Source of the DNA: Phenylobacterium sp.
GTDB taxonomy: Bacteria; Pseudomonadota; Alphaproteobacteria; Caulobacterales; Caulobacteraceae
Direction of reading: 5' to 3'
Length of the DNA stretch: 64,000 bases
Assembly (NCBI RefSeq): GCF_004799515.1
Contig: NZ_SSMX01000030.1
Location: forward strand, 186,001-250,000
Below the pieces are notes generated by a model. The model was given only the letters and a program-made list of their open reading frames with translations, did no database searches and was not told the DNA's origin. Shown in pieces: positions 34,626 to 38,586 of the stretch. The position numbers and the translations under genes were made by a program. The first letter of the stretch is position 1, and every line of letters starts with the position of its first letter.

Positions 34626-36116
34626 ATGGCGGACGCCGCCCCCACGCCGCAGGAGACCGACCGGCCGAGACGGCCCCGCCTCCTTTGGCCGGGCGGCCTC
34701 TCGGCGCGCCTGCTGACGCTCACCATCCTGTTCGTGGCCGCCGCCGCCGCCTTCGCCCTGCCGCCGGCGCTGGCCTCCTTCGAGCAGCAATGGCTGCTGG
34801 ACCGCATCCGCGCCGCCGAGCTCGCCTCGCTGACCCCCGACGCCACGCCGGACCGCAAGGTCTCCCAGGCGATCGCCGCGCAGCTCCTTGAGGGCGCCGG
34901 CGTCAACCGGGTGGGCATCCAGGCCGACGGGGTGCGCCGCCTGGTGCTGGGCGGCCCGGCGCTGAAGCGCACGCCCTATGTGGTGGACCTGCGCTCCCAG
35001 GCGCCGGTGTCCTGGCTGCTGGCGCCGTTCCAGACCCTGTTCGGCGGCGACGGGCGGTTCGTGCGCGTGGTGGCCAGCCCCACCTTCCTGCACGCCGACT
35101 TCGTGGAGGTGGTGGCGCCGGACGCCGAGTTGAAGGCCGGCCTGGTCGCCTATCTCTGGAAGCTGGTGCTGGTGGCGGCCTTCGTCTCCACGGCGGCGGG
35201 CATCCTGGTCTACCTGACGCTCAACTTCTTCCTGGTGCGGCCCATGCAGCGGATCACCTACGCCATGGAGCGGTTCCGCGCCGATCCGGAGGACCCCGAG
35301 GCGCGCGTCCAGCTGTCCGGCCGCCGTGACGAGGTGGGCCGCGCCGAGATGGAGCTCGACCGCATGCAGGCCGATCTGCGCGTGGCGCTGAACTCCCGCG
35401 CGCGGCTCGCGGCGCTCGGCGAGGCGGTGGCCAAGATCAACCACGACCTGAAGAACATGCTGACGAGCGCCCAGATCGCCTCGGAGCGGCTGGCGGCGCT
35501 GAAGGACCCCAAGGTCAGCCAGGCCCTGCCGCGCCTGGAGCGGGCGCTGGACCGGGCGGTGAAGCTGGCCTCCGGCGTGCTGGACTACGGCAAGTCCGAG
35601 GAGGCCGCTCCCGAGCCCCGGCCGATCGTCCTGGCCGCCGCCGTCGCCGCCGCCGCCGACGAGGCCCGGCTCGCCGAGCACCGGATCCGCCTCACCCGCC
35701 AGATCGGCAAGGCCGAGCGGGTCCGCGCCGATCCCGACCAGCTGCACCGCATCCTGGCCAACCTGCTGCGCAACGCCCGCGAGGCCATCGAGCACCAGGA
35801 GGGACGCCGCGCCGCCGGCCGCATCACCGTCACCCTGACCCGGCTCGGCGACTCGAGCCTGGTCCGCGTCGCCGACAACGGCCCCGGCCTGCCGGAGCGG
35901 GTGCAGGAGCGCCTCTTCCAGCCCTTCGCCGGATCCGGCCGGCCGGGCGGCACGGGCCTGGGTCTGGCCATCGCCCGCGAGCTTGCCCAGGGCCACGGCG
36001 GCGACCTGACCCTGGTCGCCACCGGCCCCGACGGCTCGGTCTTCGAACTGCGCCTCCCCGGCGTCCCGCCGCCCGCCGCGCCGGGCCGCCGCGGGCCGGC
36101 GGCGAAGAAGGGCTAG
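34626..36116 (+). CDS. Membrane sensor histidine kinase (orphan)
   Basis: This 496-residue kinase has two membrane helices (~27-50 and ~178-203) flanking a ~125-residue periplasmic sensor. HAMP-like residues 204-257 lead to the dimerisation block with phospho-acceptor His273 in KINHDLKNMLTSAQIASERL, and the ATPase domain follows (LHRILANLLRNAREAIEH, VADNGPGLPERV, GGTGLGLAIARELAQGHGG). The H-box variant HDLKN is typical of a kinase group in alphaproteobacteria. No response regulator is adjacent. The Pro/Arg/Lys tail after the ATPase domain is low complexity. It stands 74 bases after pyrD. Confidence 0.92.
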   Translation: MADAAPTPQETDRPRRPRLLWPGGLSARLLTLTILFVAAAAAFALPPALASFEQQWLLDRIRAAELASLTPDATPDRKVSQAIAAQLLEGAGVNRVGIQADGVRRLVLGGPALKRTPYVVDLRSQAPVSWLLAPFQTLFGGDGRFVRVVASPTFLHADFVEVVAPDAELKAGLVAYLWKLVLVAAFVSTAAGILVYLTLNFFLVRPMQRITYAMERFRADPEDPEARVQLSGRRDEVGRAEMELDRMQADLRVALNSRARLAALGEAVAKINHDLKNMLTSAQIASERLAALKDPKVSQALPRLERALDRAVKLASGVLDYGKSEEAAPEPRPIVLAAAVAAAADEARLAEHRIRLTRQIGKAERVRADPDQLHRILANLLRNAREAIEHQEGRRAAGRITVTLTRLGDSSLVRVADNGPGLPERVQERLFQPFAGSGRPGGTGLGLAIARELAQGHGGDLTLVATGPDGSVFELRLPGVPPPAAPGRRGPAAKKG

Positions 36117-36134
36117 ATCGCCGCAATGCCTCCA

Positions 36135-36198
36135 AGATCCTCCCCCTCAGGGGGAGGTGGCGGCCGGAGCGAAGCGATCGGCAGACGGAGGGGGAAAC
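36135..36198 (+). repeat. Left inverted repeat of the DUF559 unit
   Basis: This 64-base repeat has hairpin arms TCCTCCCCCT/AGGGGGAGG in its outer part, a GAGCGAAGCGA middle, and an inner end GACGGAGGGGGAAAC. It matches the right copy in inverted orientation over its full length with scattered differences in the middle. Confidence 0.8.
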
Positions 36199-36501
36199 CT
36201 AGCCGCCTCCCGCCTCGTGCAGGATCATCCGCACCGCATCGTCGAGCGATTGCAGGACATAGGCAGCCGACAGTCGCAACGTGCGAATCCCCTGCGCCGT
36301 CAGCCAACGATCCCGCCGCATGTCGCGACCGGGTTGGGCCCCAACGCCATGGCTCTGGCCGTCGATCCCGATCGCCAGCTTGGCGCTGTCGCAATAGAAA
36401 TCGAGCACATAGGGACCGACAGGATGCTGCTTGCGGAAGTGCAGCCCATCCGTGCGGCGCCCCTTCAGCCTCCGCCAGATCAGCACTTCTGGCAGGCTCA
36501 T
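36199..36501 (-). CDS. DUF559 endonuclease-like protein
   Basis: This 100-residue protein has the DUF559 pattern related to very-short-patch repair nucleases (PD-(D/E)xK fold). SLPEVLIWRRLKGRRTDGLH is followed by FRKQHPVGPYVLDFYCDSAK with Asp34, GIDGQSH, and the helical end RDRWLTAQGIRTLRLSAAYV. In relatives the strand before DG reads E-x-D; here residue 45 is Gly (GGG codon, one transition from GAG/GGG-type change), so a canonical catalytic Glu seems lost. The flanking 64-bp inverted repeats suggest that gene and repeats travel together. Real activity is unknown. Confidence 0.8.
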   Translation of the reverse strand: MSLPEVLIWRRLKGRRTDGLHFRKQHPVGPYVLDFYCDSAKLAIGIDGQSHGVGAQPGRDMRRDRWLTAQGIRTLRLSAAYVLQSLDDAVRMILHEAGGG

Positions 36502-36551
36502 TGTTCGGCGCAGCGCTCTGGCCCGTTGGCGGGTATTCAGCGGGGCTTCCA

Positions 36552-36615
36552 GTTTCCCCCTCCGTCACGTCTCGCTGCGCTCGCCGCGACACCTCCCCCA
36601 AAGGGGGAGGATTTT
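36552..36615 (-). repeat. Right inverted repeat of the DUF559 unit
   Basis: Read on the minus strand, this 64-base copy starts with a hairpin (TCCTCCCCC TTT GGGGGAGG) and ends GACGGAGGGGGAAAC, like the left copy. The hairpin loops differ (TCA versus TTT) while the stems are kept, which suggests selection for structure. Confidence 0.8.
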
Positions 36616-36629
36616 GCGACGGCGTCCTA

Positions 36630-38357
36630 TCAATACCCCCGTGCGACGCCCTCGCGCCTCGGGTCGGCGCCGCCACGCAGGCCGTTTGGGGTCATCTCGA
36701 TCCCCTGCTCGCCGGAGCCCTCGCCAAAGCCGCCGCCGCGCAGGGCGACGCCCTTGGCGGCCAGGCCAGCCACCACGCCGGGCGGATAGCGCGCCGGCTC
36801 CGAGGCGTAGATGGTGTCGAAGGCGATGAGGTTGGGCAGGTTGATCGCCTCCTGCACCGGCAGCTTCCAGGCCATCAGCCCCACCAGCACCTTGAGGTTG
36901 AAGGCGATGATCGACGGGCCGCCCGGCGAGCCGGCCCCGGCGACGAAGCGGCCTTCCTTGTCCAGCACGATGGCCGGGGCCATGGACGAGCGCGGCCGCT
37001 TGCCGCCGGCCGGCGCGTTGGCGGCCGGGGCGCCGTCCTGGTCCTTCGGCGAGAAGGAGAAGTCGGTGAGCTGGTTGTTCAGGAAGAAGCCCGCGACCAT
37101 CTTGCCGTCGCCGAAGATGCTCTCGACCGTGGTGGTCATGGAGACGGCGTTGCCGTCCTTGTCGACGATCACGAGATGGGTGGTGCCGCCGGGCTCCCGG
37201 GTGCGGTCGGGCGCGCGGACCCCGGCGCCTTTCGGCGTCCCCGGACCGGGCGGCGGGCCGGCGCTGGCCGGATTGATCAGCTTGGCGCGGGCGTCCAGGT
37301 AGTCCGCCGCCAGCAGGCCTTCCATGGGCACGGAAACGAAGTCCGGGTCGCCGTAGTAGCGGTCGCGGTCGGCGTACATCAGCCGGCTCGCCTGGCTGAA
37401 CAGGTACCAGCCCTGGACGTCGTTGGGGTGCTTCTCGATGTCCGTGCGCTGCAGGAGGCCCAAACCCTCCAGCACCGCCGGGCCGCCGGACGGCGCCGGG
37501 GGCACGCAGACGGTGTACTCGCGGTAGGGCCGGCAAACCGCCGGGGTGGCCTTGGGCTTGTAGGACGCCAGGTCCTTCAGCGTCATGGCGGTGGGGTAAG
37601 GCCCCTCGCGAAGCTTGGCCACGATCTCAGCGGCGATCGGGCCCTCCAGGATCGCCTTGGGCCCTTCCGCCGCGAGCCGCTTCAGGGTCGCCGCGTAGGC
37701 CGGGTTCTTCATCAGCTCCCCGGCCTGCACCTTGGTCCCGTCGGGCTTGGTGAAATAGGCGACGGCGTCCGGCTGCCGGGCCTGGGGCGCGCCGGAGACG
37801 GCGGCGTCGGCCATCCGCTTGGGCACGTGGAAGCCGTCGGCGGCGAGGTGCTCGGCGTCCCCGAACAGGTCCTTCCAGGCCAGCTTCCCGTGCTGGCTCT
37901 GCGCCAGGTAGAGCATGGCGATGGCGCCGGGCACGCCGGCCGAGCGGCCGCCGACGATCGCCTGGCCCTTGGGCATGGGCTTGCCGTCCGGGCCGTAGAA
38001 CAGCTCGGGCGTCGCCGCGGCGGGGGCGGTCTCGCGGCCGTTGTAGGCGGTCACCTTGCGGGTCTTGGCGTCGTAGTAGGTCATGAAGGCGCCGCCGCCG
38101 AGGCCGGAACTCTGCGGCTCCTCCAGGCCCAGCACCGCCTGGACGGCGACCGCGGCGTCCACCGCCGAGCCGCCGGCCTTCAGCACCTTCAGGCCCGCGT
38201 CCACCGCGTCCGGTTCGGCGGCGGCGACCATGGCCGTCGGGCCCTTCTCAGGGGCGGCCAGCGCCTGGGTGGCTGGCGCGGAGACGGCCAGGACGGCGGC
38301 GGCGGCCACAAAGAAAGCGGAGGGGCCGAGGGACAGGAAACGCTTGGCGACGGTCAC
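36630..38357 (-). CDS. ggt: Gamma-glutamyltransferase / glutathione hydrolase
   Basis: This 575-residue periplasmic Ntn-hydrolase is made as one chain that self-cleaves before Thr392 (GGTTHLVIVDKDGNAVSMTT). It transfers or hydrolyses the gamma-glutamyl group of glutathione. A signal peptide (FFVAAAAVLAVSAPATQALA) leads. NGRETAPAAATPELF holds the substrate-carboxylate Arg, and SSMAPAIVLDKEGRFVAGAGS then GGPSIIAF supply small-subunit substrate contacts. The lid-loop region GAPAANAPAGGKRP is Ala/Gly-rich. It ends 15 bases from the right repeat of the DUF559 unit, so the insertion may have altered its 3' region. Confidence 0.96.
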   Translation of the reverse strand: MTVAKRFLSLGPSAFFVAAAAVLAVSAPATQALAAPEKGPTAMVAAAEPDAVDAGLKVLKAGGSAVDAAVAVQAVLGLEEPQSSGLGGGAFMTYYDAKTRKVTAYNGRETAPAAATPELFYGPDGKPMPKGQAIVGGRSAGVPGAIAMLYLAQSQHGKLAWKDLFGDAEHLAADGFHVPKRMADAAVSGAPQARQPDAVAYFTKPDGTKVQAGELMKNPAYAATLKRLAAEGPKAILEGPIAAEIVAKLREGPYPTAMTLKDLASYKPKATPAVCRPYREYTVCVPPAPSGGPAVLEGLGLLQRTDIEKHPNDVQGWYLFSQASRLMYADRDRYYGDPDFVSVPMEGLLAADYLDARAKLINPASAGPPPGPGTPKGAGVRAPDRTREPGGTTHLVIVDKDGNAVSMTTTVESIFGDGKMVAGFFLNNQLTDFSFSPKDQDGAPAANAPAGGKRPRSSMAPAIVLDKEGRFVAGAGSPGGPSIIAFNLKVLVGLMAWKLPVQEAINLPNLIAFDTIYASEPARYPPGVVAGLAAKGVALRGGGFGEGSGEQGIEMTPNGLRGGADPRREGVARGY

Positions 38358-38509: not shown

Positions 38510-38586
38510 GCGCCCGTAGCTCAGCTGGATAGAGCATCAGACTACGAATCTGAGGGTCGGACGTTCGAATCGTTCCGGGCGCGCCA
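38510..38586 (+). tRNA. tRNA-Arg (anticodon ACG)
   Basis: The 77 bases fold into a complete cloverleaf: acceptor GCGCCCG pairing with CGGGCGC, D-arm GCTC/GAGC, anticodon stem TCAGA/TCTGA around loop CTACGAA, and T-arm with TTCGAAT. Anticodon ACG reads CGU, and CGC/CGA after A34 deamination. The CCA end is encoded. tRNA-Arg genes are frequent integration sites; no integrase lies just downstream here. Confidence 0.97.

What the first reader, a model, noticed from the sequence alone, without database searches (positions are those of the whole stretch)
36135..36615. DUF559 gene framed by 64-bp inverted hairpin repeats: a possible autonomous REP-like element
Seen: two 64-base copies in opposite orientation tightly frame one gene; the left copy ends at the base before its stop codon, and the right is 50 bases upstream of its start. 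Each copy has a CCTCCCCC/GGGGGAGG hairpin on the outside and GACGGAGGGGGAAAC on the inside; hairpin loops differ while stems are kept. Known: REP/RAYT systems pair hairpin repeats with a Y1-type nuclease. Inference: here a DUF559 (Vsr/PD-(D/E)xK-like) protein may play that part in a different lineage. This is the strongest candidate for an undescribed mobile unit.
Basis: partly seen in the sequence, partly recalled or inferred. Interest (0 to 1): 0.75.

Follow-up and report, generated by a model that had tools for sequence, protein, structure and literature searches.

The report
Triplex-ended mobile element carrying DUF559 nuclease
A tiny jumping unit, made of one nuclease-like gene between two fold-back DNA repeats, is found in very diverse bacteria, and it may explain how a widespread and long unexplained class of bacterial repeats spreads.

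Summary
The two copies are inverted, heads-out repeats of the intrastrand-triplex kind (BoxC/PIT/TM): pyrimidine arm, purine arm, mirror-image third arm. The 0.48-kb unit is an insertion: 0 of 14 relatives that keep the same two neighbour genes together carry it. All four DUF559 genes found in this genome are framed by inverted repeats, each with its own sequence. In samples from several phyla, 192 of 197 DUF559 genes have a triplex-type repeat within 300 bp. Inverted framing: 139 of 198 genes, then 37 of 47 in a further sample, against 0.3% of control intervals and 0 of 30 ParE genes. Copies at different loci are homologous up to the repeats' outer edges, almost never beyond (1 of 344 pairs). 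Repeat and protein covary. TMECO-like motifs co-occur with DUF559, not with Y1 (RAYT-type) transposases. I conclude: a mobile element whose only gene is a Vsr/homing-type PD-(D/E)xK nuclease, with gene-less pairs as likely offspring. That the nuclease acts on the repeats is inferred. The window copy is probably dead (catalytic Glu is Gly). No target duplication was found.

The parts
36133..36616 (-). whole element: repeat - DUF559 - repeat, inserted between a convergent histidine-kinase gene (34626-36116 +) and a gamma-glutamyltransferase gene (36630-38357 -); the two gene names are my reading of the translations
   Evidence: the same two neighbours stand together without DUF559 in 14 of 14 relatives, gap 11-188 bp in 11 of them
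36133..36198 (+). left triplex-type repeat, head outward: Y arm 36139-36146, R arm 36150-36157, second loop 36158-36186, third arm 36187-36194
36552..36616 (-). right triplex-type repeat, head outward: Y arm 36610-36603, R arm 36599-36592, second loop 36591-36564, third arm 36563-36556
36199..36501 (-). DUF559 ORF from its first ATG (100 aa); the first conserved helix lies upstream of this ATG in the same open frame, which runs up to 36564 and holds no ATG, GTG or TTG upstream
   Evidence: Pfam PF04480 75.3 bits, cut-off 20.6; frame
36367..36369 (-). codon GGG (Gly) at the position that is Glu in 195 of 198 DUF559 proteins of the survey (motif IExDG)

Best explanation
It is a copy (probably a dead one) of a miniature autonomous mobile element of about 0.4-0.55 kb. 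Its ends are two intrastrand-triplex repeats, usually heads-out, and its only gene is DUF559, a small PD-(D/E)xK nuclease of the Vsr / I-Bth0305I fold. Most likely mechanism: when the element's DNA is single-stranded (for example at the replication fork) the two inverted repeats fold; the DUF559 protein recognises the folded repeat, cuts at or near its outer edge, and the unit is copied or moved to a new intergenic place by replication and repair. The same protein would serve gene-less repeat pairs in trans, which would make BoxC/PIT/TM repeats its non-autonomous derivatives. SHOWN here: repeats, framing, unit boundaries, occupied, gene-less and empty states of orthologous sites, covariation of repeat and protein, co-occurrence, conserved acidic residues, predicted fold. 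INFERRED: that DUF559 cuts the repeats, that folding in single strands matters, and copying rather than cut-and-paste.
For: Framing: inverted flank score >=36 in 139 of 198 distinct DUF559 genes (46/60, 37/65, 56/73 by set) and 37 of 47 in a further family sample; control intervals 59 of 18,356 and 9 of 2,676; ParE control genes 0 of 30. Triplex-type repeat within 300 bp: 192 of 197; density 3.62/kb beside the gene, 0.11/kb elsewhere in the same loci. Boundaries: of 344 pairs of homologous genes at different loci, DNA homology runs more than 25 bp past the outer repeat edge in 0 (5') and 1 (3'); 35 end within 15 bp of both edges. Two copies in one genome match over 1352-1767 where the repeats span 1353-1766 (L028/L074). 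Insertion: kinase-GGT sites without it; at a second site one species has the element, one a gene-less heads-out pair of the same repeat family, two others neither; at a third site four species have it and others a gene-less heads-in pair or only a head hairpin. Covariation: within-genome protein identity against repeat similarity rho 0.59, 68 pairs; loop type changes 32 times on the tree against 44-64 in 200 shuffles. Co-occurrence: 16 of 19 genomes with TMECO-like motifs have full-length DUF559 against 14 of 95 without (p 7e-9); Y1_Tnp 6 of 19 against 19 of 95 (p 0.36); own genome has no Y1_Tnp. Conserved residues: D45 197/198, E56, D58 and H62 each 195/198. Fold: 3hrl, 3r3p.
Against: No experiment shows DUF559 cutting a triplex repeat. 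No target duplication and no exact empty junction could be read. One genome (G034) has 17 TMECO-like motifs and no DUF559 match. About 30% of the 198 genes fail the inverted-pair test; some have ends of two different subtypes or heads-in pairs, and heads-in repeats are common in the flanks (left 66, right 62 of 197, against heads-out 155 and 146). The gene-less pairs at the L145 site (L280, L281) are heads-in, so they are not simple gene-deleted copies of the heads-out element there. Direct (non-inverted) flank matches are also frequent (21/60, 21/65, 28/77 at >=36), because several repeats often sit on one side. Of 37 genes whose nearest protein is in another genome, 14 have a repeat more like one in their own genome (23 the other way). 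A Caulobacter DUF559 protein (VsrA) has been given a host repair role (PMC12907096, passages read). Co-occurrence is not corrected for genome size or phylogeny.
Confidence: 0.65

Rival explanations
1. Homing-type spread: DUF559 is a free-standing homing endonuclease that cuts duplex DNA at repeat-bearing or hairpin-bearing sites, and the unit is copied into the break by recombination; the repeats serve as recognition site and homology arms rather than as transposon ends.
For: The nearest solved relatives include the homing endonuclease I-Bth0305I (3r3p). Orthologous sites with repeats but no gene beside sites with the gene would fit insertion into a site that already has repeats.
Against: Copies at different loci share both repeats out to their outer edges, so the repeats travel with the gene; orthologous sites in L340 and L341 have no triplex-type repeat anywhere in the fetched 3.9 kb, and the 11 short kinase-GGT gaps show no such repeat by eye.
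Confidence: 0.2
2. Passenger: repeat pairs are moved by some other machinery (or by replication slippage), and DUF559 genes are frequent cargo or host repair genes that sit in them.
For: Repeats also occur away from DUF559 (164 found in the flanks of the sampled loci), and one motif-rich genome lacks DUF559. A DUF559 protein has been tied to host DNA repair in Caulobacter (PMC12907096, passages).
Against: ParE genes are not framed (0 of 30); Y1 transposases do not co-occur; repeat type follows the DUF559 protein within genomes. Whether other genes are framed was tested only for ParE and for shifted intervals.
Confidence: 0.1
3. Static framing: the repeats are terminators or structural spacers that happen to flank a small intergenic gene, without mobility.
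For: The window element lies between two convergent genes, where terminators are expected.
Against: Orthologous sites without it, paralogous copies bounded at the repeats, and repeat sequences that differ from gene to gene within one genome. Holder et al. cite earlier work finding no promoter or terminator activity for PIT motifs (section read).
Confidence: 0.04

Closest known systems
REP sequences / REPINs with RAYT (TnpA_REP) transposases
   Same: Small hairpin repeats, often in inverted pairs and often without a gene; a single small nuclease gene framed by repeats; repeat and protein covary. (Features of REP/RAYT are recalled; papers seen as listing, one word-searched.)
   Different: The enzyme is a PD-(D/E)xK (Vsr-type) protein, not a Y1 HUH transposase; repeats have a mirror third arm; no GTAG/CGTC tag adjoins the window hairpins; no Y1_Tnp in the window's genome.
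BoxC / PIT elements / TMECO intrastrand triplex motifs (Hoyne 2000, seen only as cited; Holder 2015, PMC4666352)
   Same: Same Y-R-mirror R architecture, intergenic, sometimes as inverted pairs. MG1655 motif no. 9 of their Table 1 lies between fabI and ycjD, which encodes an E. coli DUF559 protein.
   Different: That paper reports that no genetic-mobility activities were found around TMECO sites; its text has 0 hits for words beginning DUF or endonuclease. The window repeat has other letters and a 28-29-nt second loop.
Vsr mismatch endonuclease and Vsr-like homing endonuclease I-Bth0305I
   Same: Related fold and sequence (3r3p E 3.8e-4 by profile; 3r3p and Vsr 1vsr by structure).
   Different: Vsr is a repair enzyme that works with a cytosine methylase and I-Bth0305I is intron-associated (both recalled); framing by inverted repeats is not known to me for either.
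RIME elements of rhizobia (recalled; only a listing of papers seen)
   Same: The rhizobial repeats seen here (L145, L371) resemble the published RIME palindromes as I recall them.
   Different: Not compared letter by letter; I recall no gene assigned to RIME.

Membership tests
DUF559 (Pfam PF04480) | score above the curated cut-off | tested here: met
   75.3 bits against 20.6
DUF559 as an active PD-(D/E)xK nuclease | conserved acidic residues of the active site (assigned by me from the profile alignment with 3r3p) | tested here: not met
   window copy: D45 and D58 present, Gly at E56; Glu there in 195 of 198 proteins, window included. Most of the family meets it; activity itself not tested
Intrastrand triplex motifs (BoxC/PIT/TM) | Y arm, complementary R arm, third arm the mirror of R (A may be T) | tested here: met
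   exact 8/8/8 in both window copies. Survey: third arm >=7 of 8 in 229 of 262 copies against 18% with shuffled letters; mirror beats direct copy 137 to 12, 111 equal, of 260
TMECO consensus as published | CCCTCNCCC...GGGNGAGGG...GGGNGAGGG | tested here: not met
   own genome 0 exact matches; the window repeat has CCTCCCCC arms
REP/RAYT system | Y1 HUH transposase encoded in the unit or the genome | tested here: not met
   Pfam scan of the ORF shows only DUF559 and MTES_1575; 0 Y1_Tnp in the own genome
REP/RAYT system | inverted hairpin repeats, also dispersed without the gene | tested here: met
   heads-out pairs without DUF559 in the own genome (L009, L010); of 164 repeats away from DUF559 in the sampled loci, 31 adjacent heads-out pairs (median spacer 41 bp), 15 heads-in, 6 direct, 63 repeats unpaired
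REP/RAYT system | GTAG or CGTC tag at the foot of the palindrome | tested here: not met
   neither tag adjoins the head hairpin in either window copy (read by eye)
Insertion sequence / MITE with terminal inverted repeats | target-site duplication | tested here: inconclusive
   none evident by eye in the 27 copies printed; no exact empty junction available
Homing endonuclease | cuts the allele that lacks the element; copied by break repair | not testable with these tools
   only fold and sequence kinship shown

The most novel reading that the evidence does not exclude
DUF559 is the missing mobiliser of a large share of bacterial hairpin repeats: a class of mobile elements, unrelated to RAYT, DDE or HUH transposons, with triplex-folding ends and a lone Vsr/homing-type PD-(D/E)xK nuclease, present in several phyla. 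It would be the source of BoxC/PIT/TM repeats (E. coli ycjD being a surviving copy beside one) and probably of rhizobial RIME.
Probability: 0.57. Interest if true: 0.93.

Novelty: categorically new. Interest (0 to 1): 0.86.

Why it matters
Triplex-type repeats (BoxC/PIT/TM) have been known in E. coli since the 1990s and one G/C-rich motif is reported in more than 260 genomes, but the 2015 survey found no mobility gene near the E. coli sites and no function for the genes beside them (PMC4666352: abstract, three sections and passages read). Tying them to one small nuclease makes their origin directly testable, gives a role to a common family of unknown function (found in 73 of 99 genomes of this family at E <= 1e-15), and would add an enzyme class to those known to drive bacterial mobile elements. 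It also bears on how the Caulobacter DUF559 protein VsrA, recently given a repair role, is read.

Tried and rejected
REP/RAYT membership was rejected: no Y1 protein and no tag. RAYTs moving these repeats: Y1_Tnp does not co-occur with TMECO-like motifs (p 0.36). Chance or position effect: control intervals and ParE genes are nearly or wholly negative. Target duplication: looked for by eye on 10 loci, 27 copies and two orthologous sites; none clear. Some copies (L146, L329, L330, L334) show bases of inverted match outside the repeats; not explained. Plasmids: 45 of 72,556 records match one query protein at E 1e-5; the locus of one Azospirillum copy is present, element included, in all 7 Azospirillum records that match it, so no empty site there; the Sinorhizobium query mostly hit dispersed repeats and an insertion sequence. 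Rfam has no gathering-level match to these repeats (6 loci; window). Two of my notes are wrong and are corrected here: says 17 loci with the kinase (one search gives 14), and calls the L280 pair heads-out (it is heads-in).

Limits of the counts. Set A: full-length matches. Set B: loci given plus 40 stretches I chose from its list (weaker or partial matches and some others, such as G215:C12, were not fetched). Set C: the best 80 of 580 confirmed places, found with a pattern over the active-site motif, which favours intact genes. Set D: 47 genes, 27 from loci given and 20 stretches I chose; many listed matches were not fetched. Sets A, B and D hold several genes per genome. Dropped before counts: L029 (copy of L085), 4 genes with too short flanks, L191 (N run), duplicates L180, L210, L220, L245, one more with short flanks; in set D L304 and L309 (same places as L322 and L319) and L001 (already counted). 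One search left out pairs in which neither gene reaches 36 (so L028/L074 is not among the 344) and set aside 24 pairs judged to be one locus by flank homology or by homology running >150 bp past the repeats; pairs share genes.

Full report
OBSERVATION. Each is a head hairpin CCTCCCCC-nnn-GGGGGAGG followed, after 28-29 nt, by GGAGGGGG, the exact mirror of the purine arm. That is the architecture of an intrastrand triplex motif (pyrimidine arm, purine arm, third purine arm). Heads point outward. The ORF between them is DUF559 (Pfam 75.3 bits).

THE UNIT IS AN INSERTION. The neighbours are a histidine-kinase gene and a gamma-glutamyltransferase gene, convergent (names from my reading of the translations). 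A search of 60 genomes of the family found the transferase end in 52. Of the 29 relatives fetched besides the window, 14 have the kinase beside it (a weak match to another kinase in L088 not counted), with 11-188 bp between the matches in 11 and longer other sequence in 3; none of the 14 has DUF559 by tblastn. Two of the 11 (L090, L091) are in the same genus.

NOT ALONE. The genome (4.7 Mb, 56 contigs) has four DUF559 genes (one split into two matches). All four are framed by inverted repeats, and each pair has its own sequence (scores 68, 71, 74, 49). The head hairpin pattern occurs at 10 places in the genome; of these, two without DUF559 (L009, L010) are heads-out triplex pairs, and two (L006, L011) are not triplex repeats by the strict scan.

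SURVEY. DUF559 was sought in 114 genomes of the class (42 with a match), 160 of the phylum (55), a pattern scan of one genome per species (best 80 of 580 places kept) and 99 genomes of the family (73). After removing duplicates 198 genes remain from the first three. Inverted flank score >=36: 139 of 198 (46/60, 37/65, 56/73). Same-size intervals in the same loci: 9/4883, 29/5096, 21/8377 (before the last duplicates were removed; a few of these controls fall on other repeat pairs or second DUF559 genes). Family sample: 37 of 47 against 9 of 2676. ParE toxin genes, same class sample, 30 loci: none reaches even 30. A strict triplex scan (8-nt arms, at most one mismatch) finds a repeat within 300 bp of 192 of 197 genes, heads-out at 182, heads-out on both sides at 119; density is 3.62 per kb beside the gene and 0.11 per kb elsewhere. 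In set C framing is also seen outside Pseudomonadota (my assignment from record titles): Chloroflexota (L188, L190, L223), Nitrospirota (L247), sulfate-reducing and related deltaproteobacterial lines (for example L218, L229), Gastranaerophilales (L193), FCPU426 (L254) (titles, scores). L186, L198, L205, L209, L221, L224 and L251, from such groups too, did not reach 36.

BOUNDARIES. Two copies at different places in one genome (L028, L074) match over bases 1352-1767 where the repeats span 1353-1766. Over the samples, 344 gene pairs at different loci were compared, at least one gene of each with score >=36: homology passes the outer repeat edge by more than 25 bp in 0 (5') and 1 (3'), and ends within 15 bp of both edges in 35. 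Many other pairs are too diverged to align to the ends, so the medians lie inside (134 and -94). 24 pairs judged to be at the same locus were set aside.

STATES OF ONE SITE. At the site of L298 (61 genomes, 30 loci fetched) one species has the DUF559 element (L339, heads-out repeats); L342 has at the same stop codon a heads-out pair of the same repeat family with about 130 bp between and no DUF559; L345 has such a repeat at a contig end; L340 and L341 (flanks 94% and 90% identical) have no triplex-type repeat in the whole 3.9 kb fetched; other loci hold other sequence. At the site of L145 in another genus (51 genomes, 30 loci) four species have DUF559 (L260, L266, L271, L274); L280 and L281 have an inverted pair without the gene, but heads-in, so not a simple deletion of the gene; L278, L279, L288 and L289 have only a head-hairpin remnant; L267 has several repeats of another type; others have longer sequence I did not resolve.

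PROTEIN AND REPEAT GO TOGETHER. Protein identity and repeat similarity correlate over 9591 pairs (rho 0.31; 0 of 300 permutations) and within genomes (68 pairs, rho 0.59), where host relatedness is not a factor. Of 37 genes whose nearest protein is in another genome, 23 have a repeat more like that one and 14 more like another in their own genome. Short against long second loop changes 32 times on the protein tree; 200 shuffles gave 44-64. The third arm matches the mirror of its own hairpin arm at >=7 of 8 in 229 of 262 copies with 37 different arms (18% with shuffled letters; mean 7.41 against 6.62 with tails permuted), and better than a direct copy in 137 against 12 (111 equal).

CO-OCCURRENCE. 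TMECO-like motifs occur in 19 of the 114 class genomes, with none for the reversed pattern. Full-length DUF559 (my cut on the rows) is in 16 of these 19 and 14 of the other 95; Y1_Tnp in 6 of 19 and 19 of 95. This is not corrected for genome size or phylogeny. G034 (17 motifs, no DUF559) is an exception. Only one of several letter-types was counted; the window's own type is not in this pattern.

E. COLI. Table 1 of Holder et al. lists a motif at 1,351,204-1,351,239. MG1655 has fabI at 1,350,251-1,351,039 and ycjD (DUF559) at 1,351,407-1,351,760, so this motif lies between them; a partial second motif overlaps the 3' end of ycjD, and none was found on its 5' side. One of the two original BoxC references in that paper is the envM gene sequence; that envM is fabI is recalled.

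ENZYME. Solved relatives by sequence are 3hrl (E 2.7e-36) and the homing endonuclease I-Bth0305I 3r3p (E 3.8e-4). The AF2 model of the window protein (44 rows, mean pLDDT 84) matches 3hrl (E 4.9e-6) and 3r3p (E 5.9e-5) best; weaker matches include a Toxoplasma mitoribosomal protein, PvuRts1I and Vsr 1vsr (E 2.2e-3). D45, E56, D58 and H62 are each in 195-197 of 198 proteins. The window protein has Gly at E56, and no ATG, GTG or TTG stands upstream of the conserved first helix, so this copy is probably inactive; the C20 copy in the same genome keeps the Glu (L075).

LITERATURE. Library searches, listings seen unless said: DUF559 with 'inverted repeats' 0 papers; DUF559 alone 14, one read in passages (PMC12907096); COG2852 4; intrastrand triplex / PIT with endonuclease, any two terms, 8; 'Vsr-like' with repeat, mobile and homing endonuclease 1; very short patch repair with repetitive extragenic palindromic 0; Box C with RAYT and others 0. 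PMC4666352: abstract and outline, sections 12, 15 and the first part of 20, passages. PMC12306157 and PMC3733652: word searches in the text. Listings. The library lacks most subscription papers and all preprints, so a prior report cannot be excluded.

JUDGEMENT. That repeat-DUF559-repeat is a mobile unit is well supported (about 0.9). The components are known; the pairing, the enzyme class and the scale appear new within the searches named.

Noticed in passing
L341 (gap between flanks): A different long palindromic repeat (GTCATCCCGGGCCTTGTGCCCGGGACC...) stands at the site where a relative carries the DUF559 element; perhaps another repeat family with the same taste for sites.
   Followed up: no
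L146, L329, L330, L334: Several bases outside the repeats are also inverted copies of each other, differing from copy to copy, as if the target were palindromic or had been duplicated in inverse.
   Followed up: no
L028 and L074: Left and right ends belong to different repeat subtypes (short against long second loop), as if the element had distinct left and right ends.
   Followed up: partly
L034 and L052: In these two copies of one element the repeats appear heads-in rather than heads-out by eye, yet homology still spans both repeats.
   Followed up: partly
L280 and L281: Heads-in repeat pairs without a gene at a site where relatives carry the heads-out element; origin unclear.
   Followed up: partly
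   Followed up: no
L016, about 2260-2302 (MG1655, 5' side of ycjD): A long hairpin (ACCTCATTCTGACA...TGTCAGAATGAGGT) where the missing second triplex repeat would be expected.
   Followed up: no
window 38510-38583: tRNA gene, the only Rfam gathering-level match in the window.
   Followed up: no
plasmids collection: Relatives of one DUF559 query are rare on plasmids (45 of 72,556 records), which may mean that these units spread mainly within chromosomes.
   Followed up: partly
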